A stretch of DNA of 64,000 nt, from NCBI RefSeq assembly GCF_013373795.3, contig NZ_CP088022.1:4526001-4590000 (forward strand). The letters are read 5' to 3'. Both the position numbers and the translations under genes were made by a program. The notes under the pieces are model-generated. The model ran no database searches. It was not told where the DNA came from and saw only the letters and a program-made list of their open reading frames with translations. The stretch is from Bradyrhizobium quebecense (lineage in GTDB: Bacteria; Pseudomonadota; Alphaproteobacteria; Rhizobiales; Xanthobacteraceae). This document shows positions 5,183 through 45,304 of this stretch, one piece after another; position 1 is the stretch's first letter; each line of letters opens with the position of its first letter.

Positions 5183-5977
5183 TCAGACCGCGACTTCAGC
5201 CTTGATGTGCGGATGCGGGTCGTAACCCTCGAGTTTGAAGTCCTCGTAGCGGAACGCGAAGATATCCTTCACGTCGGGATTGATCGCCATCGTCGGCAAC
5301 GGCCGCGTCGGCCGCGTCAATTGCAGATGCGCCTGCTCGATATGGTTCGAGTAGAGATGTGCGTCGCCGAGCGAGTGCACGAAATCGCCGGGCCTGAGGC
5401 CGGTGACCTGCGCGACCATCATGGTCAGCAGCGCGTAGGAGGCGATGTTGAAGGGTACGCCGAGGAAGACGTCGGCCGAGCGCTGATAGAGCTGGCAGGA
5501 CAATTTGCCGTTCGCGACATAGAACTGGAACAGACAGTGGCACGGCGGCAGCGCCATCTTGTCGACCTCGGCTGGATTCCAGGCGCTGACGATCAGCCGC
5601 CGCGAGTCCGGATTGCGCTTGATCATCTCGATCACGTTCGTGATCTGGTCGATGCTGCGGCCATCGGGCGCGGGCCACGAGCGCCATTGCGAGCCGTAGA
5701 CCGGACCGAGATCGCCGTTGGCATCGGCCCATTCGTCCCAGATCGTGACGCCGTTGTCGTTGAGATATTTGATGTTGGTGTCGCCGGCGAGGAACCAGAG
5801 CAGTTCGTGCACGATCGCCTTCAGCGGCAACCGCTTGGTGGTCAGCATCGGAAAGCCGGCCGAGAGGTTGAAGCGCATCTGGTGGCCGAAGATCGACAGC
5901 GTGCCGGTGCCGGTACGGTCGTGCTTCTCGGCGCCGTCGGCGAGGATGCGTTCGAGCAGGTCGTGATACTGGTTCAT
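5183..5977 (-). CDS. thyA: thymidylate synthase
   Basis: ThyA (264 residues, the classical length) methylates dUMP to dTMP using methylene-tetrahydrofolate. The catalytic cysteine is Cys146 in [10 protein letters not shown]. The dUMP-binding arginines lie in [12 protein letters not shown] and the N-terminal HDRTGTGT loop is intact. It is the first gene of a three-gene operon that also supplies dihydrofolate reductase, the enzyme that regenerates its cofactor. The ribosome binding site is weak (AAGGG, rather far upstream). Confidence 0.97.
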
Positions 5978-36028: not shown

Positions 36029-38119
36029 CTATTTCGACCGCGCCACCGTGGTGCCGTCCCAATCCTCATCGGTGGGATTGGCGAGCTGATGCCTGCATCG
36101 CGCGATCATCTGCGTCGAGGCCATGTCCGTACCGCGGAGTTGCAAGGACCTCTCGAACGCTGCGATCGCTGCGGTGAAATCACCGGCGCGCCAGGCCGCA
36201 AGCCCGGCCTCATAGGAGGCGATCCAGTCGCGCGCGATCGCGCCCTCGTCGGCCATTGCGATCAACTCGTAGATTTCCAGCCCGCCGGCGCGGCCGTAGA
36301 CGGCGAGCCGGTCGAGCTCGCGGACGACGATGCGGTCACCGGCAAGACGCCGCGTCTCCGGACCGATGATAATGGTCGATCCATAGACCTTGTTGGTGCC
36401 CTCGAGGCGGCTTGCGATGTTCACGGCGTCGCCGATCACGGTGTAGTTGAGCCGCACTTCCGAGCCGATATTGCCGACCAGCATGTCGCCGGAATTGATG
36501 CCGATGCGGATCCTGACCGCCTCCCCCTTGTCGTCGACAAGGCCGGCCTGCGCGACCGCGCGCTGGCAGGCGAGCGCCGCCCGGCAGCAATCCGCGGCAT
36601 GATCCGGATTGGCCGCCGGCGCGCCCCAGAACGCCATCACGGCATCGCCGATGAACTTGTCGATGGTGCCGCTCTCCTGCTGGATCGCCGCGGAGACGAT
36701 GTCGAAATAGTGCGACAGCAAGGGGATGATGCGATCGCCGAGCCGTTCCGACATGCCGGTGAAACCGGCAAGGTCGACGAACATCACGCTCATCGGCCGC
36801 ACCGCGCCGCCGAGCCGCGCACCATTGCCGTCGCTGACCAGCCGCCGCACCAGATCGGCAGGAATGTATTTGCGGAACGCGGCGAGCCCCTGCGCCATGT
36901 CGCCGATCGCACCCGACAGGTTTTCGATCTCGGCAAGGCGCGACGGATGCCGCTCGACCTTATCGAGGTCGAAGCGCTCGACATGCCTGATCTCGCCGAC
37001 CACCTTGATCAGGGGCGCCGCGATCAGGCGCTGCGCCAGCCAAGCCGACAACAGTCCGGCGGCAGCGATCAGCGCCGCGAGCCCGATCAGCAAATTGCGG
37101 ATTGTCATCCGCACCGGGCCGAGGAATTCGGATTCCGGCACCACCGTCACCAGCGACCAGCCCGGGAACGAGATCGGCGTCAGCACCGCCTGATAGGCCT
37201 GCCCGTCGCGCGTCACCTGGGAGCGGTACGCCTCGCCCTCGCCGGGATCGTAGGCCTTGCCGGCCTGCCTGACCGCGGCGACGGCAACCGGCAGCAGCGG
37301 GTGGTCGGTCTTCTGCGCATTCAGCTCGTCGGCGTCAGCATCGGGAGACGCGATCACGCCGCCGTCGCGGTCGAGCAGGAAGGCGCCCGCGGACTTGCCG
37401 ACCGTGAGCTGCGAAAGGAAGTTCGACACCCGGGTCAATTCGATGATGATGGCGAGCACGCCGGTGCGCTCGCCGTCGATGTCGATCGGCACCGCCAGCA
37501 TCGCGGCCAGCCGTTCGCCGCGGGGCAGCGTCGTCAGCGTCGACCATTGCTGGTCGCGGGCCGCGATCGCATCACGAAACCAGGGCTGCTCCGTGACCAG
37601 ATATTTGCCGTCCTCGACAGTGCTGCCCTTCGGCTTGATGTCGATGCCGGCATAGTCGTATTGATCGGCCCGCAGCTTGCGGTCGGGCGAGATGGTCAGC
37701 ATCTCGACGCCGGCGTCGCCGAGCTTGTGGGCGCCAAAAAACGAACCGTCCGGCCAGCCGAACGCAACCCACGAGATGGTCGGTTGCGACTGCAACTGCG
37801 ACAGGAACACGAACTGCCGCTTGCGCGCGTCGCGGGCGTCCAGCACCTTCTCGGTCAACAGCGTCCGCACCGCCGTCATCGACGAGCGCGCTTCGGTCGT
37901 GATCGACTGCAATTCGTCGCCGACCGCGGAGACGATCTGGTCGTTGATGGTGTCGGCCAGCGTCTGGCTCACCCGTTGTGCGGTGCGCCACCACAACAGA
38001 TGCACGCCGACGGCGCTGACCACGATCGAGGTCAGGACGAGGGCGGAGATGGCACTGCGGATGCCGATGCGCATCGATGAGGTCCCGATCAGCGGTTGCT
38101 TTACCGCAATACGGAACAT
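36029..38119 (-). CDS. membrane-bound sensory adenylate/guanylate cyclase (dCache)
   Basis: The 696-residue protein has a membrane helix (about 20-43), a periplasmic sensor of about 290 residues with a dCache-like pattern (YDYAGIDIKPKGS, FPGWSLVTVVPE), a second helix (about 342-365), a short HAMP-like linker and a class III cyclase domain (about 443-570). Metal-binding motifs FVDLAGFTG and FIGDAVMAFWG are both present. A TPR-like tail ends the protein. It should make cAMP in response to a small periplasmic ligand. The start is uncertain: ATG at 38119 or 38074; neither has a good ribosome binding site. Confidence 0.88.
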   Translation of the reverse strand: MFRIAVKQPLIGTSSMRIGIRSAISALVLTSIVVSAVGVHLLWWRTAQRVSQTLADTINDQIVSAVGDELQSITTEARSSMTAVRTLLTEKVLDARDARKRQFVFLSQLQSQPTISWVAFGWPDGSFFGAHKLGDAGVEMLTISPDRKLRADQYDYAGIDIKPKGSTVEDGKYLVTEQPWFRDAIAARDQQWSTLTTLPRGERLAAMLAVPIDIDGERTGVLAIIIELTRVSNFLSQLTVGKSAGAFLLDRDGGVIASPDADADELNAQKTDHPLLPVAVAAVRQAGKAYDPGEGEAYRSQVTRDGQAYQAVLTPISFPGWSLVTVVPESEFLGPVRMTIRNLLIGLAALIAAAGLLSAWLAQRLIAAPLIKVVGEIRHVERFDLDKVERHPSRLAEIENLSGAIGDMAQGLAAFRKYIPADLVRRLVSDGNGARLGGAVRPMSVMFVDLAGFTGMSERLGDRIIPLLSHYFDIVSAAIQQESGTIDKFIGDAVMAFWGAPAANPDHAADCCRAALACQRAVAQAGLVDDKGEAVRIRIGINSGDMLVGNIGSEVRLNYTVIGDAVNIASRLEGTNKVYGSTIIIGPETRRLAGDRIVVRELDRLAVYGRAGGLEIYELIAMADEGAIARDWIASYEAGLAAWRAGDFTAAIAAFERSLQLRGTDMASTQMIARCRHQLANPTDEDWDGTTVARSK

Positions 38120-38264
38120 ATCCGCGATTGTTTCGCCAGCCCGGGACGCAACGCAGCACCCGGACACGGGCCTGTGACCATAGTTGAAGGCGCCGACGAC
38201 GAAACTTCTGGATTGTTGGCTGCGTACACGCCAAGAGAGGACAGCTACCCTCGAAGGTTCCTTG

Positions 38265-38996
38265 ATGCACGACGTCACGATCCCGGCCGCCTTGATCGCC
38301 GGTCTAGTCAGCTTCCTGTCGCCCTGCGTGCTGCCGCTGGTGCCGCCCTATCTGATCTACCTGACCGGTGCGACCATCGAGCAGGTCAACCAGGACGGCG
38401 CCACCGCAGCATCCAAGCGCGCGGTGATGATCTCGGCGGTCATGTTCGTGCTCGGCTTCTCGACCGTGTTCGTGGCGCTCGGCGCCAGCGCGTCGATCGT
38501 CGGCGGGCTGGTCCGCGCCTGGTCGGCCGAGCTCTCGATCCTGGCCGGCATCGTCATCATCATCATGGGCCTGCACTTCCTCGGCATCACCCGGATCGGC
38601 CTGTTGATGCGCGAGGGGCGGCTGACCGCGCCCAAGCCGGTCGGGCTGTGGGGTGCCTATGTCATGGGCCTGGCGTTCGCCTTCGGCTGGACACCCTGCA
38701 TCGGGCCGATCCTGGCCGCGATCCTTTCGATTGCGGCCGCGGAGGCCACGGTGACCAAGGGCGCCGGCCTGCTCGCGGCGTATTCCGCCGGGCTCGGCAT
38801 CCCCTTCCTGGTCGCCGCCTTTCTGGTCGAGCAGTTCTCCTCACTGTTCGCGCGAATGAAGCGCCACCTCGACACCGTCGAGCGCGTGATGGGCGTGTTG
38901 ATGGTGATCACCGGCATCGGCTTCCTGACCGGCGCGGTGTCCGGCGTCAGCGTCTGGCTGCTGGAAACCTTCCCGGCGCTGCAAAATATCGGATAG
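38265..38996 (+). CDS. ccdA: CcdA/DsbD-type cytochrome c biogenesis protein
   Basis: The 243-residue membrane protein has six helices. The two conserved cysteines lie in FLSPCVLPLVPPYL and FGWTPCIGPILAA. CcdA moves reducing equivalents from cytosolic thioredoxin to periplasmic thioredoxin-like proteins, mainly for heme attachment to cytochrome c. GAAGG stands seven bases before the ATG at 38265. It is divergent from the cyclase and is followed by doxX and a secreted protein with a WCHWC motif, so a wider periplasmic thiol role is possible. Confidence 0.92.
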   Translation: MHDVTIPAALIAGLVSFLSPCVLPLVPPYLIYLTGATIEQVNQDGATAASKRAVMISAVMFVLGFSTVFVALGASASIVGGLVRAWSAELSILAGIVIIIMGLHFLGITRIGLLMREGRLTAPKPVGLWGAYVMGLAFAFGWTPCIGPILAAILSIAAAEATVTKGAGLLAAYSAGLGIPFLVAAFLVEQFSSLFARMKRHLDTVERVMGVLMVITGIGFLTGAVSGVSVWLLETFPALQNIG

Positions 38997-39024
38997 GGCC
39001 CGTAACAAGCCCGCCATGTCAGGC

Positions 39025-39053
39025 GAAACTCCCACCATGACGCGGCCGTAGCT
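39025..39053 (+). promoter_or_regulatory. candidate ECF-sigma promoter of the DoxX gene
   Basis: GAAACT, 16 bases, then CGTAGCT. The -10 part is identical to those before both bufferin precursor genes; the -35 part matches GTAACC at 4 of 6 positions. It lies 79 bases before the ATG. Confidence 0.45.
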
Positions 39054-39131: not shown

Positions 39132-39596
39132 ATGAACTTCATCGTCAACCTGCTGATTCTGCTGCCGGCGCGGATCGCCTCGCATTTTTCCTGGGCCGGG
39201 CCGCTGATCATGCGGATCATCGTCGGCTACACCTTCATGCTGGCCGGCTGGGGCAAGCTCACCAACCTCGCCCAGGTCACTGAGAACTTCGTCGGCTGGG
39301 GCATTCCGTTCCCGACCATCCTCACCCCCTTCGTATCCGGCGTCGAATGCTTCGGCGGCGCGATGCTGATCCTCGGCCTGTTCACCCGCATCCCCGCCGC
39401 GATGCTCGCGGTGGTGATGATCGTCGCGATCAAGTCGGCGAAATGGGGCGACGTCGACTCGCTGGAGACGCTGCTCGGGTTTGAGGAGGCGACCTATTTC
39501 GCCGCCTTCATGTGGCTTGCGATCGCAGGTCCCGGCGCCGCCTCGCTGGACCGCCTGCTGGTCAACGCGGCCGAGGGCCGGAAGGCGCCGACCTGA
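39132..39596 (+). CDS. DoxX family membrane protein (BufD-like)
   Basis: The 154-residue protein has four membrane helices and the DoxX features RIIVGYTFMLAGWGKL and GVECFGGAMLILGLFTRIPA. DoxX proteins are quinone-linked or redox-associated membrane proteins of varied role, and one type (BufD) belongs to bufferin operons. Its position 2.2 kb before two bufferin precursor genes, with a shared promoter motif, suggests that it serves this module. GGGAGGG precedes the ATG. Confidence 0.85.
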   Translation: MNFIVNLLILLPARIASHFSWAGPLIMRIIVGYTFMLAGWGKLTNLAQVTENFVGWGIPFPTILTPFVSGVECFGGAMLILGLFTRIPAAMLAVVMIVAIKSAKWGDVDSLETLLGFEEATYFAAFMWLAIAGPGAASLDRLLVNAAEGRKAPT

Positions 39597-39693: not shown

Positions 39694-41484
39694 ATGAGAC
39701 TTGTCGGTACCATCGCAATTCTCGTGGCCTTGAGCGCGTCGCCATCACGCGCGGCGGACGCTCTGGCATGGACCGGCTGGAGCCACGATCTGTTCGCGCG
39801 CGCCGCGACCGAGCAGCGGTTCGTCATCCTCGATCTTGAGGCCGTGTGGTGCCACTGGTGCCACGTGATGGAGAAGACGACCTACGCCGACCCCAAGGTG
39901 CAGGAGCTGCTTGCGGCGAAATACCTCCCGGTGCGCGTCGACCAGGACGCCAATCCGGATCTCTCGAGCCGCTACGGCGACTGGGGCTGGCCTGCGACCA
40001 TCGTGTTCGCGCCTGACGGCAACGAGATCGCCAAGATCAGGGGCTACATCGAGCCCGAGCGGATGCAGGCGCTGCTCAAGGCCATCATCGACGATCCCTC
40101 GCCGGGCCCGTCGGTCGGCGAGGCGTTCGAGATCAAGCCCGCCACATCGGCGTTTCTCAGCAAGGCGCAACGCACCGAGCTGACCAGGACATTCGACGAA
40201 TCCTACGACGACAAGCTCGGCGGCTGGGGCGAGAACCAGAAATATATCGATGCCGACAGTCTCGACCTCGCGATCAGCCGGGCCGAAGGCGGCGACGCGT
40301 CAGCCACACGGCGCGCAAGGCAGACGCTCGATGCCGCGATCGCGCTGATCGATCCGGTGTGGGGCGGCGTGTTCCAGTATTCCGAGGCCGGCTCCTGGAG
40401 CCATCCGCATTTCGAGAAGATCATCGCTTTCCAGTCGCAATATCTGCGGCAATACAGCCAGGCCTATGCGCAGTGGAAGGAGGCGAAATATCTCGCGGCC
40501 GCGCGCAACGTCGAGCGTTACCTCACGGATTTCCTGCTGGGCCCGGACGGCGCCTTCTATGTCAGCCAGGACGCCGATCTCGATCACGACGTCGACGGCC
40601 ACGCCTATTATGCGCTTGATGATGCCGCGCGCCGCAAGCTGGGCCTGCCTCGCATGGACAAGAACCTCTATGCGCGCGAGAACGGCTGGGCGATCTCAGG
40701 CCTCGTGGCCTATTACGACGCGAGCGCCGATCCCAAGGCGCTCGAGATCGCCGAGCGCGCGGCGAAATGGGTGCTCGCCAATCGCGCGCTGCCGGACGGC
40801 GGCTTCCGCCATGGCGACAGGGATCGCGGCGGCCCCTTCCTCGGCGACACCGTTGCGATGGGACAGGCTCTGCTCGATCTCCATGCCGCGACCGGCAATC
40901 GCGACTGGCTGACAGCCGCGGTGAGGGCCGGCGACTTCGCCGCGACGTTCCGCGACGACGCCGGCGGCTTCCTCACCTCGAAAACGCCGGAAGGACAAGC
41001 CGGCGTATTCGCCAGGCCCGCCAAGCTGATCGACGACCAGATCCAGGTCGCGCGCTTCATGAATATGCTCAATCGCTATACCGGCACCGACGGCACCCGC
41101 GAACTCGCGGCGCACGCGATGCGCTATCTCGGGGCGGCTTCGAGCGAGGTGCCGCGGCCGATGCCGGGCGTGCTGCTCGCCGATGAGGAGCTCGCCACCG
41201 AGCCGACGCATGTCACCATCGTCGGACACAAGGACGACACGCGCGCGCAACGCCTGCATGCGATCGCCCGCGCCCTGCCCGCACGCTACAAGCGGCTCGA
41301 ATGGCTCGACCTGCGCGAGGGCAGATTGCCCAACCCGGACGTCGACTATCCCGACCTCGGCGAGCCCGCGGCCTTTGCCTGCAGCAACCGCATCTGTTCG
41401 TTCCCGGCGTTCAGCGCCGCGGAATTGCAGGCCAACGTGGCGCAGATGGCGAAGCTGAAGCCGGCGCGCGCCGCGCAGAACTGA
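39694..41484 (+). CDS. secreted DUF255 (YyaL-like) thioredoxin-domain protein
   Basis: The 596-residue protein has a signal peptide (1-20, ending SPSRA). A thioredoxin-like domain has the motif EAVWCHWCHVMEK with Cys53 and Cys56, followed by WGWPATIVFAPDG, where cis-Pro is expected. The rest is an alpha/alpha-barrel-like region as in YyaL/SPATA20 proteins. Function is unknown; a periplasmic thiol-redox role is likely from the CxxC and from ccdA nearby. GGGAG precedes the ATG. A CGTAGCT element stands 30 bases upstream at 39658, but its -35 partner is poor. Confidence 0.86.
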   Translation: MRLVGTIAILVALSASPSRAADALAWTGWSHDLFARAATEQRFVILDLEAVWCHWCHVMEKTTYADPKVQELLAAKYLPVRVDQDANPDLSSRYGDWGWPATIVFAPDGNEIAKIRGYIEPERMQALLKAIIDDPSPGPSVGEAFEIKPATSAFLSKAQRTELTRTFDESYDDKLGGWGENQKYIDADSLDLAISRAEGGDASATRRARQTLDAAIALIDPVWGGVFQYSEAGSWSHPHFEKIIAFQSQYLRQYSQAYAQWKEAKYLAAARNVERYLTDFLLGPDGAFYVSQDADLDHDVDGHAYYALDDAARRKLGLPRMDKNLYARENGWAISGLVAYYDASADPKALEIAERAAKWVLANRALPDGGFRHGDRDRGGPFLGDTVAMGQALLDLHAATGNRDWLTAAVRAGDFAATFRDDAGGFLTSKTPEGQAGVFARPAKLIDDQIQVARFMNMLNRYTGTDGTRELAAHAMRYLGAASSEVPRPMPGVLLADEELATEPTHVTIVGHKDDTRAQRLHAIARALPARYKRLEWLDLREGRLPNPDVDYPDLGEPAAFACSNRICSFPAFSAAELQANVAQMAKLKPARAAQN

Positions 41485-41806
41485 TTAAAATGCAGACTGT
41501 GCAACGCAGCAAACCGGTCGGCTCGGCGCAATGAAATACTCTTTGGCCCACGGTGTTCGACATGGACCGGGCGTCAGACCCGGACCAAACAAAATTTTCT
41601 TTTGAAGCGCTGTAACCAAATCGCCTGATACCCCGTAGCTGATCTTGGACGAGCACTCAAATCGCGGGAAGCACCGCGCCGCGGACGCCCCTGCGATCTG
41701 ATTGTTCTCCGAATGTCCATCCGTTGTGCGGTCCGGGATCGAACGATCGTCGGATGCTCACGGCGCCATGTTTTTTTGCTTTCAAACAATCACCGAGGAG
41801 ATCGTC
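41485..41806. other. 322-base leader region before the first bufferin precursor
   Basis: No gene is visible here. A GC hairpin (about 41574-41592, one mismatch) followed by T-rich sequence may terminate the DUF255 gene. The candidate ECF promoter at 41612-41640 then leaves an untranslated leader of roughly 160 bases. Confidence 0.6.
41612..41640 (+). promoter_or_regulatory. candidate ECF-sigma promoter of the first bufferin precursor
   Basis: GTAACC, 16 bases, then CGTAGCT. The -35 box is extended to GTAACCAAA, the same as at the second precursor. GTAAC-type -35 boxes are typical of ECF sigma factors. Confidence 0.65.
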
Positions 41807-42070
41807 ATGAAGTTGAGTTCGAAGTCCGGCGCAACGCTCGCCGTCGCTGCGGCCACCCTGTTCCTCGCCGGCTCCGTGGTTTCGACCACCTCGACGCCCG
41901 CGAATGCCGCCATGGGCAAGTGCATGGCCGGCAATGCCTGCAAGGGCCAGAGCGCCTGCAAAGGCGGCGCCAATTCCTGCAAGGGCCTGAACGCCTGCAA
42001 GGGCACCGGCTTCTCGCTGAGCTCCGAAAAGCAGTGCAACGCGATGGGCGGCAAGTTCGTCAAGAGCTGA
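41807..42070 (+). CDS. bufferin-type Cys-rich RiPP precursor, copy 1
   Basis: The 87-residue precursor has a Sec signal peptide (about 1-34, ending PANA). The core has six cysteines at 39, 45, 51, 58, 64 and 77. Most lie in the repeated form ACKGxxACKG. Bufferins are periplasmic copper-binding peptides whose cysteines are modified by an MNIO enzyme; the MNIO gene bufB follows. It is probably of the BufA2 class, but I cannot be sure of the subclass. GAGGAG precedes the ATG. The cysteine spacing 6-6-7-6-13 is the same in the second copy. Confidence 0.85.
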   Translation: MKLSSKSGATLAVAAATLFLAGSVVSTTSTPANAAMGKCMAGNACKGQSACKGGANSCKGLNACKGTGFSLSSEKQCNAMGGKFVKS

Positions 42071-42147
42071 TCGCAATCGTCCCAAGAGGGCGCGGCGATG
42101 GCGCCGGGCCTTTCGCGCCACGGCGCGGATAAATGATCCCAGCATGG

Positions 42148-42175
42148 GTAACCAAAGCGGTGCATATCCGTAGCT
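42148..42175 (+). promoter_or_regulatory. candidate ECF-sigma promoter of the second bufferin precursor
   Basis: GTAACC, 15 bases, then CGTAGCT. It repeats the element of copy 1 (GTAACCAAA and CGTAGCT) and lies 80 bases before the ATG. Confidence 0.65.
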
Positions 42176-42254
42176 ATCCCTGGGAGCAGCCTTCGGCCAA
42201 CTCACACGGGTTGCGGGCGGCGCACCTTCAACCATCTTGCAAAAGGAGACGCTC

Positions 42255-42512
42255 ATGAAGCTTACAACCAAGTCCGGTGCCACGCTCGCCGCCGCAGCCG
42301 CCACGCTTTTCCTGGCCGGAGCCGTGGTGTCGACACAGTCCTACGCTGCGAGCGAAGGCAAATGCGTTGGCGCCAATGCATGCAAGGGCCAGAGCGCCTG
42401 CAAGGGCGGCAATCACGCCTGCAAAGGTCAGAATGCCTGCAAGGGCCAGGGCTTTGCCGAGATGACGAAGGCCGACTGCACCGCAGCCAAGGGCAAGTTC
42501 AAGGCCGGGTGA
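42255..42512 (+). CDS. bufferin-type Cys-rich RiPP precursor, copy 2
   Basis: The 85-residue precursor is a paralogue of copy 1, with nearly the same signal peptide (KSGATLA, AAATLFLAG). Its cysteines are at 37, 43, 49, 56, 62 and 75. The core reads NACKGQSACKGG, then HACKGQNACKGQGF. The C-terminal ADC and Lys-rich end is conserved. AAGGAG precedes the ATG. It is 184 bases after copy 1 and has its own promoter-like element, so the copies may be expressed independently. The peptide should be secreted by Sec after, or around, modification by BufB. Confidence 0.86.
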   Translation: MKLTTKSGATLAAAAATLFLAGAVVSTQSYAASEGKCVGANACKGQSACKGGNHACKGQNACKGQGFAEMTKADCTAAKGKFKAG

Positions 42513-42528
42513 ACGGATCGGACCAAGC

Positions 42529-42556
42529 GGGGCCCGGTGTAGGCCGGGCCTCGTTT
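42529..42556 (+). terminator. attenuator-like hairpin between precursor and bufB
   Basis: GGGGCCCGG pairs with CCGGGCCTC (one G-U) around a six-base loop, then GTTTCC follows. The short T run suggests partial termination, which would keep precursor mRNA in excess over enzyme mRNA. Confidence 0.6.
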
Positions 42557-42613
42557 CCATGATAGTTTTGAAGTTGGGCGCCACGATCCTGGCGCCAGAA
42601 GCGCGGAGCCGCC

Positions 42614-43513
42614 ATGAACGTTGCGAGCCGATCACCGGACAAGTCGGTGCTCGCAGAGCGCCCGCTGCAATCAGCCAAGCCGCCGTTCCTCGGCTTCGGC
42701 CTCGGCCTGCGCGCCCAGCACTACGACGAGATCCTGAACGGAAATCCGGCGATCGACTGGTTCGAGGTGATCAGCGAGAACTACATGCTGCCGGGCGGCC
42801 AGCCGCTGCGGATCCTCGACCAGATCTGCGCGCGCTATCCCGTGGTGATGCACGGCGTCTCGCTGTCGATCGCCTCCACTGCGCCGCCGAATTTCGACTA
42901 TCTGCAGAGCCTGAAGGACCTCGCACAACGCGTGCAGCCGAAATGGGTGTCCGACCATCTGTGCTGGACCGGCGTACACGGCAAGAACCTGCACGATCTG
43001 CTGCCGATCCCCTATACGCAGGAGGCGCTCGATCACGTCGTGAGCCGCGTGCAGCTGGTGCAGGATTTCCTCGGCCGCGCTATCGTGCTCGAGAATGTCT
43101 CGACCTATGTACAGTTCAACAATTCCGAGATGACGGAGTGGGAATTCCTCTCCGAGCTGTCGCGCCGCTCCGGCTGCTGGCTGCTGTTCGACATCAACAA
43201 TGTCTATGTCAGCGCCTTCAACCACGGCTACGATCCGATGGCCTTCCTCAACGGCATTCCCGCCGATCGCGTGGTGCAATTCCACATGGCGGGCCACAGC
43301 CATATGGGCACGCACATCATCGACACGCACGACCATCCGGTGTGCGAGGATGTCTGGGACCTCTATGTTGCGGCCTTGAAGCGGTTCGGACGCGTCTCGA
43401 CCATGATCGAGCGCGACGACAACATCCCGCCGCTCGACGAATTGCTGCGCGAGGTCGACCGCACCCGCGAGATCGCCGAGCAGGTGCTGCCCGTGGGCGC
43501 GCCGGCGGCATGA
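42614..43513 (+). CDS. bufB: MNIO (DUF692) oxidative enzyme BufB
   Basis: The 299-residue enzyme is a multinuclear non-heme iron oxidase of the DUF692 family (relatives: MbnB, TglH). It modifies cysteines in peptide precursors. Its TIM barrel shows the metal-ligand motifs: His80 (VVMHGVSLS), His115 (SDHLCWTG), Glu160 (VLENVSTY), Asp193 with Asn196 (LFDINNVYVS), His224 and His228 (QFHMAGH), and Asp237 with His239 (IDTHDHP). The substrates are almost certainly the two precursors just upstream. It overlaps the partner gene bufC by ATGA, and GGAG precedes its ATG. Confidence 0.92.
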   Translation: MNVASRSPDKSVLAERPLQSAKPPFLGFGLGLRAQHYDEILNGNPAIDWFEVISENYMLPGGQPLRILDQICARYPVVMHGVSLSIASTAPPNFDYLQSLKDLAQRVQPKWVSDHLCWTGVHGKNLHDLLPIPYTQEALDHVVSRVQLVQDFLGRAIVLENVSTYVQFNNSEMTEWEFLSELSRRSGCWLLFDINNVYVSAFNHGYDPMAFLNGIPADRVVQFHMAGHSHMGTHIIDTHDHPVCEDVWDLYVAALKRFGRVSTMIERDDNIPPLDELLREVDRTREIAEQVLPVGAPAA

Positions 43514-44295
43514 GCGACTTCGCGCGCCAGCAGAGCGAGTTTCAGCACGCCATCCTCAGCGGCGACGACGGCATCCTGACCGAAATCCTCGACAGCCCCA
43601 AGGAGACGCGCGCGACGCTGTTCGGCGTCTATCGCCATGCCTACGGCTCGCGGCTGGTCGAGGCGATGCGTAACGACCACGAACTGCTGCATCGCTTTCT
43701 CGGCGACGAGATGTTCGACGAGATGGGCCATGCCTACGTCGAGGCACGGCCGTCCGAGCATCCGAACCTGCGCTGGTTCTCGCAGGGATTGCCGGATTTC
43801 CTGAAGGCCACCGCCCCCTACAGCAACCATCCCGTGCTCGCCGACCTCGCCGCACTGGAGAAGGCATTGAACGACGCCTTCGACGCGAGGGAAGGCGCCT
43901 TGCTGGCGCTGGAGGCGATGTCCGGTTTCGCGCCCGAGGTCTGGAACGATCTCGTGTTCCAGCCGCATCCGAGCGCTGCGAGGGTCGACCTATCGACCAA
44001 TGCCGCAGCGGTCTGGATGGCACTGAAGAACGACGAGACGCCGCCCGAGGCGGAGACGCTCGCCGAACCCGCCCGTCTCCTGATCTGGCGTCAGGACACA
44101 ACGCCGATGTTCCGCGAGCTGCCGACGGAGGAAGCAATGATGTGGGACGAAGCCTCCGATGGCGTTCCGTTCGGCGTGCTCTGCGAGATGCTCGCGACCT
44201 ACGACGATCCCGACAATGCCGCGGCGCGCGGCGCCGGCTATCTGCATGGCTGGATCACGGCCGGACTTCTGATGGCAGCATCCGTTCGCGAATAG
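43510..44295 (+). CDS. bufC: DUF2063 domain protein, BufB partner (BufC)
   Basis: The 261-residue protein has the N-terminal DUF2063 helical domain (QQSEFQHAILSGD, TRATLFGVYRHAYGSRLVEAM) found beside MNIO enzymes, and a C-terminal domain of mixed fold. In such systems the partner binds the precursor and presents it to the iron site. It is coupled to bufB by a four-base overlap. The old family label of putative DNA-binding is misleading in this context. Confidence 0.88.
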   Translation: MSDFARQQSEFQHAILSGDDGILTEILDSPKETRATLFGVYRHAYGSRLVEAMRNDHELLHRFLGDEMFDEMGHAYVEARPSEHPNLRWFSQGLPDFLKATAPYSNHPVLADLAALEKALNDAFDAREGALLALEAMSGFAPEVWNDLVFQPHPSAARVDLSTNAAAVWMALKNDETPPEAETLAEPARLLIWRQDTTPMFRELPTEEAMMWDEASDGVPFGVLCEMLATYDDPDNAAARGAGYLHGWITAGLLMAASVRE

Positions 44296-44314: not shown

Positions 44315-45304
44315 ATGAAGAGCATCCCGACATATCGCGTGATCGCTGGCGCGATGCTGGTCGCGGCAATCCTCATCGGCATAGCATCGTGCCACGTCAG
44401 GGCGCAGTCCGAGTTCATGCGCGGCGAGGGCATGCCCTACGACGCCTTCGATCGGCTGCCCAAGACCGATCTCGACGTCGCCGGCGCCACCATCCATGTC
44501 GGGTTCGCACCCGGCGAGATGGCGCTGCCGAAGGACAAGATATTCGACTGGATCAAGGTGTCCGCCCGCGCGGTCTCGATCTATTACGGCCGGTTTCCCG
44601 TCAGCTCGTTGCGGCTCTTGATCGTGCCGGTCGACGGTTCGCGCGTGCGCGGCGGCACCACCTGGGGCTATCGCGGCGCCGCGATCCGGCTGCCGATCGG
44701 CCGCGACGCGGGCGTCGACGATCTCAAGCGCGACTGGGTGATCGTGCACGAGATGGTGCACACCGCCCTGCCCGATCTCGACGACCGCTACGCCTGGCTG
44801 TCGGAGGGGCTCGCGGTTTATGTCGAGCCGATCGCGCGGGTGCAGGCCGGCGATCTCACGGCGCGGGAGATCTGGCTGGCGATGCTGCGCGACATGCCCA
44901 AGGGCCTGCCGCAGGCCGGCGATGAGGGCCTCGACAATACCGACACCTGGGGCCGGAAATACTGGGGCGGCGCGATGTTCTGCCTGTTCGCCGATGTCGA
45001 GATCCGCAAGCGCACCGGCAACAAATTCGGCTTGCAGGATGCCATGCGCGGCGTGCTCGCCGCCGGCGGCAACCACGAAAAGGACTGGCCAATCGCGCGC
45101 GTGCTCTCGACCGCCGACAAGGCCGTCGGCGTCGACGTCCTGACGCGGCTGCACGGCGAATGGGGATCGAAGCCCGTGACGCCCGATCTCGCCGCGCTGT
45201 GGCGCGATCTCGGCGTCAGGCTGCAGGGCGAGAGCGTCGAATTCGACGACAGCGCGCCGCTGGCCGATATCCGCAAGGCAATCACCGAAGCGCGCGCTGG
45301 CTAG
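44315..45304 (+). CDS. exported HExxH zinc metallopeptidase-like protein
   Basis: The 329-residue protein has the zinc motif HEMVH (145-149) followed by LSEGLA, whose Glu164 fits the third ligand of gluzincin peptidases. An N-terminal hydrophobic segment ends in IASC, a possible lipobox with Cys26; cleavage by signal peptidase I at VRAQ is the alternative. It starts 19 bases after bufC on the same strand and could be co-transcribed, so trimming of exported bufferin is an attractive but unproven role. Its closest named family is not clear to me. Confidence 0.75.
   Translation: MKSIPTYRVIAGAMLVAAILIGIASCHVRAQSEFMRGEGMPYDAFDRLPKTDLDVAGATIHVGFAPGEMALPKDKIFDWIKVSARAVSIYYGRFPVSSLRLLIVPVDGSRVRGGTTWGYRGAAIRLPIGRDAGVDDLKRDWVIVHEMVHTALPDLDDRYAWLSEGLAVYVEPIARVQAGDLTAREIWLAMLRDMPKGLPQAGDEGLDNTDTWGRKYWGGAMFCLFADVEIRKRTGNKFGLQDAMRGVLAAGGNHEKDWPIARVLSTADKAVGVDVLTRLHGEWGSKPVTPDLAALWRDLGVRLQGESVEFDDSAPLADIRKAITEARAG

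What the first reader, a model, noticed from the sequence alone, without database searches (positions are those of the whole stretch)
41807..44295. Bufferin RiPP locus with two tandem precursor paralogues and one MNIO enzyme
Two secreted Cys-rich peptides with identical cysteine spacing (6-6-7-6-13) and the repeated ACKGxxACKG core are followed by bufB (DUF692/MNIO, all metal ligands visible) and bufC (DUF2063). MNIO enzymes convert cysteines to heterocycles, and bufferins bind copper in the periplasm (family knowledge). Two diverged precursors feeding one enzyme suggests two mature metallophores with different ligands or timing. The six-cysteine repeated core is denser than in simple bufferins.
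Basis: partly seen in the sequence, partly recalled or inferred. Interest (0 to 1): 0.85.

Follow-up and report, generated by a model that had tools for sequence, protein, structure and literature searches.

The report
Twin copper-peptide locus with stress promoters
A Bradyrhizobium-type soil bacterium carries two small secreted cysteine-rich peptides and the enzyme pair that would modify them to bind copper; that kind of locus is already known, but here each peptide gene has its own promoter of an oxidant-stress type, which suggests that these copper-binding peptides belong to the cell's envelope stress response.

Summary
Both peptides pass the curated cut-off of the BufA2 bufferin family and the enzyme that of BufB; the partner is a DUF2063 protein. 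It is a type-2 bufferin locus. The cysteine spacing is the family norm (93 of 100 precursor ORFs in relatives), so 'denser' is wrong; tandem precursors are already in print. 'Different ligands' has no support.

New here: each precursor has its own ECF16/EcfF-type promoter. Two of the seven strict matches in the 9.17-Mb genome lie at these genes. In 64 tandem loci of the genus a looser form precedes precursor A in 63 and B in 63, against about 1 of 64 in shuffles. The genome's one NrsF-type anti-sigma sits about 3.4 Mb away behind a sigma gene with the same motif, and methionine-sulfoxide-reductase units share it. The published survey saw sigma genes in Buf1 but not in Buf2 clusters.

Conserved hairpins follow the precursor genes; precursor A tends to occur with a thioredoxin-like gene.

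Verdict: known family, new regulatory variant. Modification, copper binding and sigma dependence are inferred, not shown.

The parts
38265..38996 (+). CcdA/DsbD_TM-type membrane protein (PF02683); conserved neighbour, likely electron carrier across the membrane
   Evidence: conserved order in relatives
39132..39596 (+). DoxX protein (PF07681), likeness to HvfX family below cut-off (65.4 of 80 bits)
39694..41484 (+). DsbH/DUF255 protein with thioredoxin-like CxxC (WCHWC) and signal-like N-terminus; tends to occur with precursor A
   Evidence: PF03190 78.8 bits; co-occurrence
41612..41637 (+). ECF16/EcfF-type promoter A, GTAACC-N16-CGTA, 195 bases (box start) before bufA-A
41807..42070 (+). bufA-A, Buf2 bufferin precursor
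   Evidence: NF050166 74.7 bits, cut-off 60
42086..42113 (+). hairpin after bufA-A, terminator-like in relatives; weak in the window itself (z -0.39)
42148..42172 (+). ECF16/EcfF-type promoter B, GTAACC-N15-CGTA, 107 bases (box start) before bufA-B
42255..42512 (+). bufA-B, Buf2 bufferin precursor
   Evidence: NF050166 84.5 bits, cut-off 60
42526..42555 (+). strong conserved hairpin between bufA-B and bufB (z -4.47); its 20-base core has no other exact copy in the genome
42614..43513 (+). bufB, MNIO bufferin maturase; ERDD at residues 266-269
   Evidence: NF050167 388.8 bits, cut-off 310; PF05114
43510..44295 (+). bufC, DUF2063 partner protein
   Evidence: PF09836 70.4 bits, cut-off 27.2
44315..45304 (+). 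HExxH protein with M61/M1 aminopeptidase-like predicted fold, 19 bases after bufC; possible peptide processing, untested
   Evidence: no Pfam match; invariant H145 E146 H149 E164 in 12 aligned; model and fold search

Best explanation
A Buf2-type bufferin locus whose two precursor genes each start from their own ECF16 (EcfF-type) promoter. (1) An envelope oxidant or metal signal acts on the anti-sigma OsrA/NrsF and frees EcfF (inferred from Caulobacter and B. japonicum). (2) EcfF starts transcription in front of each precursor gene (promoter sequences and their conservation shown; use inferred). (3) Hairpins after bufA-A and bufA-B favour precursor message over enzyme message (hairpins shown; effect inferred). 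(4) BufBC recognises the shared N-terminal region and converts CKG cysteines of both peptides to 5-thiooxazoles (inferred from the family). (5) Both peptides leave by Sec and hold copper in the periplasm (inferred from the family). The two paralogues most likely raise the dosage of one kind of product; what sets them apart is unknown.
For: Family models. Single MNIO, two BufA2, no DUF2282 in the genome. BufB has the Asp reported for Cys-Lys enzymes (ERDD; 75 of 81 BufB share it; 3bww has ERDF there; PMC13097082 section 14). Promoters: 3 strict matches in the window against 0.03 by shuffles, two of them here; 7 in the genome, two of them here; 63 of 64 A and 63 of 64 B upstream stretches, both in 62 of 64, against 0.86 and 1.0 in shuffles and 0 on the antisense strand. 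Sigma pair: one NrsF match in the genome behind a sigma gene with GTAACA-N14-CCGA ahead of it. The same motif type ahead of Msr genes, as in the B. japonicum EcfF regulon. ECF16 sigma factors are reported to control MNIO operons in Caulobacter and S. meliloti. Hairpins. Shared N-terminus.
Against: No expression, mass or binding data exist for this locus. The looser motif is at chance level in the window as a whole (7 matches, 5.0 expected), so it counts only by position. The strict published form is met by 16 of 64 B promoters (63 of 64 A), and -35 base 6 is C here but g or a in B. japonicum. The genus loci are related, so the counts are not independent. The first hairpin is no better than shuffles in the window. 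ECF16 inducers differ: Caulobacter sigma-F targets are not induced by ROS and no inducer was found in S. meliloti.
Confidence: 0.75

Rival explanations
1. Oxidant-buffer reading: in this lineage the twin peptides serve mainly as a periplasmic sulfur buffer against peroxide, hypochlorite or similar, kept reduced by CcdA and the DsbH-like protein; copper binding is secondary.
For: EcfF-type promoters at both precursors, the same motif type ahead of Msr genes, H2O2-induced EcfF in B. japonicum, an ECF16 regulon with a proposed sacrificial Met-rich peptide in Brucella (BcrX, PMC8315932, passages), conserved ccdA-doxX-DsbH upstream.
Against: Buf1 and Buf2 of Caulobacter are reported to act on copper. 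No EcfF-type box was seen ahead of ccdA in 38000-38265, so the relay is not shown to be co-regulated; one loose match lies at 39002 between ccdA and doxX. Loci without DsbH keep their promoters.
Confidence: 0.15
2. The boxes are read by another sigma factor, not EcfF.
For: -35 base 6 is C rather than g or a; the genome has eight further ECF-like matches to EcfF.
Against: The next best is 36% identical with 40.8 bits against 368.9; one NrsF match in the genome; GTAACC-N16-CGAA is the Caulobacter sigma-F form.
Confidence: 0.12
3. The two precursors are plain redundant copies and the conserved upstream boxes and hairpins are only inherited by descent without function.
For: The loci are related, and the paralogues share core and array.
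Against: At promoter B the boxes stay while the spacer varies (26 of 26 and 35 of 37 sequences distinct); pairs after bufA-A change on both sides; A and B are two lineages kept apart.
Confidence: 0.08

Closest known systems
Buf2 (Buf_6/12Cys) bufferin clusters, PMC12452194
   Same: Sec-type six-Cys precursor, MNIO enzyme, DUF2063 partner, DoxX nearby; tandem precursors reported
   Different: Sigma-factor and anti-sigma genes were reported in Buf1 and not in Buf2 clusters; here the Buf2 precursors carry ECF16-type promoters with the sigma gene far away
Caulobacter sigma-F/NrsF regulon with Buf1 operons CC2907-2905 and CC3254-3257, PMC3511200
   Same: ECF16-type promoter ahead of precursor-MNIO-DUF2063 operons
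   Different: DUF2282 (Buf1) precursors with one precursor per operon; targets not induced by ROS
Sinorhizobium meliloti RpoE7 operon SMb20530-20527, PMC6180224
   Same: ECF16 sigma drives a DUF692-DUF2063 operon
   Different: Sigma gene adjacent; first gene named only a conserved hypothetical membrane protein
B. japonicum EcfF/OsrA regulon, PMC3420878
   Same: Same promoter class, Msr genes, ecfF-osrA itself
   Different: No bufferin gene is named in the parts I read; three hypothetical targets there were not identified by me
Captophorins of the EGKCG type (fontiphorin, oxazolin), PMC13097082
   Same: MNIO with DUF2063 partner, Cys to 5-thiooxazole, copper
   Different: Lys-Cys substrates; here Cys-Lys with Asp at the matching enzyme site

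Membership tests
Buf2 bufferin precursor | Match to the BufA2 model above its curated cut-off | tested here: met
   74.7 and 84.5 bits, cut-off 60
Buf2 bufferin precursor | Six conserved Cys with Sec signal peptide | tested here: met
   six Cys, 6-6-7-6-13; signal peptide judged by eye only
Buf2 bufferin precursor | Neighbouring MNIO and DUF2063 genes | tested here: met
Buf2 bufferin precursor | Cys converted to thiooxazole; copper binding | not testable with these tools
   needs mass spectrometry and metal binding; for Caulobacter Buf2 only mass loss and 305 nm absorbance are reported
BufB, MNIO bufferin maturase | Match to BufB model above cut-off, better than to HvfB, MbnB, ChrH models | tested here: met
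   388.8 bits, cut-off 310; HvfB model 272.9, below its 360
BufB, MNIO bufferin maturase | Metal-site residues kept | tested here: met
   H80, D114-H115, E160, D193, H224, D237, H239, E266 align with the same residues of 3bww; which of them are ligands is recalled
Cys-Lys class of captophorin MNIO | Asp at the site of FonB Phe250 | tested here: met
   ERDD 266-269 in BufB against ERDF in 3bww; FonB itself was not aligned
[quoted passage not shown]
   DUF2063 residues 7-98 met; C-terminal part not tested, no solved relative by sequence
Buf1 bufferin (DUF2282) | DUF2282 domain | tested here: not met
   no PF10048 among Pfam matches of the two peptides; 0 matches in the genome
ECF16 (EcfF/SigF) regulon | Promoter of the ECF16 class ahead of the gene | tested here: met
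   both precursors; base 6 of the -35 box differs from B. japonicum
ECF16 (EcfF/SigF) regulon | ECF16 sigma with NrsF-type anti-sigma in the genome | tested here: met
   one NrsF match, sigma gene beside it; Cys131 and Cys181 counted
ECF16 (EcfF/SigF) regulon | Transcription depends on the sigma factor | not testable with these tools
   needs RNA or reporter data from sigma and anti-sigma mutants

The most novel reading that the evidence does not exclude
In Bradyrhizobium the bufferins are an arm of the EcfF oxidant response and act as a renewable periplasmic sulfur and copper buffer: two sigma-controlled promoters flood the periplasm with two CKG-rich peptides, and a CcdA-DoxX-DsbH relay, whose DsbH part goes with the second peptide, keeps them reduced and working.
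Probability: 0.15. Interest if true: 0.75.

Novelty: new variant of a known kind. Interest (0 to 1): 0.5.

Why it matters
In the survey I read, Buf2 clusters carried no sigma or anti-sigma gene, so what switches them on is unclear. A sigma factor encoded about 3.4 Mb away, with one promoter per precursor, is an answer that one deletion strain can test. It would tie copper-binding peptides to oxidant defence in root-nodule and soil bacteria and give a way to find Buf2 regulons where no regulator lies beside the cluster.

Tried and rejected
Rejected: 'denser core' (same array in 93 of 100 precursor ORFs). Rejected: the residue after DTHD as a specificity mark, my first guess in note 1 (H in 47, A in 17, Q in 12, others in 5 of 81); the published site matches ERDD instead. 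Rejected as too loose to list a regulon: the relaxed whole-genome scan (135 matches; the same pattern read backwards gave 676), used only for matches ahead of Msr genes. The strict genome scan gave 7 matches against 47 for its backward control, so the motif is not enriched genome-wide; only its places matter. Sigma-70 scan found 0 sites and the terminator scan 1, expected 2.2. BufC found no solved relative.

Rows dropped or limited: of the 65 tandem genomes, G228 (contig end) was left out, so 64 were tested. G165, counted as single, carries a shortened A. L041's hit is not a BufA and L076 gave none. Of the 80 related loci, 63 (L021-L039, L041-L084) lie outside the Bradyrhizobium/Afipia-like set and L020; 4 of the 63 had a motif match within 400 bases (L021, L028, L045, L048). 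The hairpin count takes any stem of 6 or more pairs, a few plainly unrelated. The adenylate-cyclase column came from a wrongly framed translation with stops and is not used. The EcfF targets bsr4431, bll6527 and blr7741 of B. japonicum could not be identified.

Full report
WHAT IS THERE. The window is bases 4526001-4590000 of contig 1 of a 9.17-Mb genome; the closest named relatives by BufB are Bradyrhizobium (97 and 96% identity). Two precursor genes (41807-42070, 42255-42512) are followed by bufB (42614-43513) and bufC (43510-44295). Both precursors pass the BufA2 cut-off and the enzyme passes the BufB cut-off; bufC is a DUF2063 protein. The genome gave two BufA2 matches, one MNIO match and no DUF2282/Buf1 match. 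This is a type-2 bufferin locus.

WHAT IS ORDINARY. The run 6-6-7-6-13 is present in 93 of 100 candidate precursor ORFs found at the 80 related loci. PMC12452194 (abstract, passages, sections 4, 14 and 21) gives six conserved Cys for 90% of Buf2, reports tandem precursor genes and discusses several precursors served by one MNIO. BufB has ERDD at the site where PMC13097082 (abstract, passages, sections 11, 13 and 14) finds Asp in Cys-Lys enzymes; 75 of 81 BufB share ERDD and the solved relative 3bww has ERDF.

THE PAIR IS CONSERVED. Of 265 genomes of the genus, 75 have BufA2 above cut-off; in 65 of these 75 two genes stand in tandem. The paralogues form two lineages: mean identity 84% within A, 84% within B, 65% between the two of one locus. 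The A clade (support 0.977) also takes in one sequence each from L018 and L020 (titled Hyphomicrobiales bacterium) and L019 (Afipia sp.), so the duplication looks older than the genus; the B clade is weakly supported (0.58) and also holds precursors from loci without A. A and B are most alike in the N-terminal region (84%) and the CKG core (79%), least in linker (41%) and tail (38%), as expected if one BufBC must recognise both.

THE PROMOTERS. GTAACC-N14-18-CGTA occurs three times in the window, two of them directly ahead of the two precursors (0.03 expected). In the whole genome GTAACC-N14-16-CGTA occurs 7 times, two of them here; the backward control occurs 47 times. The looser form GTAAC-N14-18-CG(T/A) is at chance level in the window (7 matches, 5.0 expected), so it means something only by place. 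In 64 tandem loci it lies within 230 bases ahead of A in 63, ahead of B in 63, of both in 62. Shuffled upstream stretches give 0.86 and 1.0 of 64 (largest 4), the antisense strand 0 and 0, and precursor genes plus downstream DNA 7 hits in 252 kb. The loci are related and not independent; but at promoter B the spacer varies (26 of 26 and 35 of 37 sequences distinct) while the boxes stay. Loci without A carry the motif too: 12 of 12 precursors in 10 loci (nine without A, plus the contig-end locus G228), within 330 bases. Outside this lineage it is rare: 4 of 63 other loci.

THE SIGMA FACTOR. The motif is that of ECF16 sigma factors: GTAAC(g,a)-N14-15-(c,t)CG(t,a) for B. japonicum EcfF (PMC3420878, passages and section 10) and GTAACC-N16-CGAA for Caulobacter sigma-F (PMC3511200, passages). 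The one NrsF match in the genome follows a sigma gene that carries GTAACA-N14-CCGA ahead of it; it lies about 3.4 Mb from the locus on the same contig. Its translation has Cys at 131 and 181 (counted), the numbers given for NrsF. It falls below the NCBIfam NrsF cut-off (108.7 of 300 bits) but far above that of Pfam (193.2 of 26.8). Among the four Msr loci fetched (two MsrB and two MsrA matches) the motif type lies 89 bases before the start of an msrA whose msrB lies 3' of it, 67 before a second msrB, and, in a looser form, 51 before the first possible start of a second msrA. NrsF is found in 262 of 265 genomes of the genus but BufA2 above cut-off in only 75: the locus plugs into a core regulator. 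Against a perfect fit: -35 base 6 is C, not g or a; and only 16 of 64 B promoters (63 of 64 A) meet the strict form. Inducers differ among ECF16 systems: H2O2 and singlet oxygen in B. japonicum; Cr and Cd but not ROS in Caulobacter; none found in S. meliloti (PMC6180224, passages); hypochlorous acid in Brucella (PMC8315932, passages).

HAIRPINS. A stem of 6 or more pairs follows bufA-A in 59 of 64 and bufA-B in 55 of 64 loci; in 2 of the 9 without one no bufB start lay in the fetched stretch, and for some others the start taken was crude. Consensus folds score -11.33 and -16.57 kcal/mol against column shuffles near 0, with two-sided change after A (G-C in 41, A-T in 12, G-T in 11 of 64 at one pair). 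In the window the second is strong (z -4.47) and the first is not distinguishable from shuffles (z -0.39). The 20-base core of the second has no other exact copy in the genome. I read them as keeping precursor message above enzyme message; this is inference.

NEIGHBOURS. The order ccdA-doxX-DsbH-bufA-A-bufA-B-bufB recurs in relatives, with two genes' worth of extra DNA between DsbH and bufA-A in L007. In 20 fetched upstream regions DsbH is present in 10 of 11 with A and 0 of 9 without A; the exception L246 showed none of ccdA, doxX or DsbH. The genes are adjacent and the loci related, so few deletions could explain this. Downstream lies an HExxH protein found in 19 of 81 records, modelled at pLDDT 86.5 and nearest to M61/M1 aminopeptidases (7xyo E 4.4e-9, TMq 0.52; 4fgm TMq 0.59). 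Fourteen of these 19 also have a creatininase-family gene (PF02633; 76.5 of 172 bits to the mycofactocin peptidase MftE), which the window, L007, L008, L021 and L045 lack. Both could process the peptides; untested.

LITERATURE LIMITS. That ECF16 control of Buf2 in Bradyrhizobium is not in print rests, all in one open-access library; of most papers listed I saw only the listing. The founding bufferin paper did not appear in these listings and is known to me only through the papers above and recall.

Noticed in passing
window 39694-41484; loci L227-L246, L005-L021, L040: The DsbH/DUF255 gene tends to occur with precursor A: 10 of 11 fetched regions with A and 0 of 9 without; 15 of 15 named loci with A and 1 of 3 without. 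Adjacent genes in related genomes, so not independent.
   Followed up: partly
L005:8695-9471 and relatives; absent after 44295 in the window: Creatininase-family gene (PF02633) between bufC and the HExxH gene in 14 of the 19 records that have the HExxH gene; faint likeness to the mycofactocin peptidase MftE.
   Followed up: partly
window 44315-45304: HExxH protein without a Pfam family, conserved beside bufferin genes, with an M61/M1 aminopeptidase-like predicted fold.
   Followed up: partly
L014/L218 (precursor A); L017, L164, L220, L221, L224 (B-type): Precursor A of L014/L218 is shorter with four Cys (6-6-13); some B-type precursors lack one core Cys (6-6-13-13), so single CKG units seem dispensable.
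   Followed up: no
genomes G230, G166, G227: G230 has 9 BufA2 matches and 8 NrsF matches; G166 and G227 have two BufA2 genes about 2.7 kb apart.
   Followed up: no
window 5222-5248: A third GTAACC-CGTA match in the window with a longer spacer; its context was not examined.
   Followed up: no
window 39002-39026: A loose GTAAC-CGA match between ccdA and doxX; the loose form is at chance level in the window.
   Followed up: no
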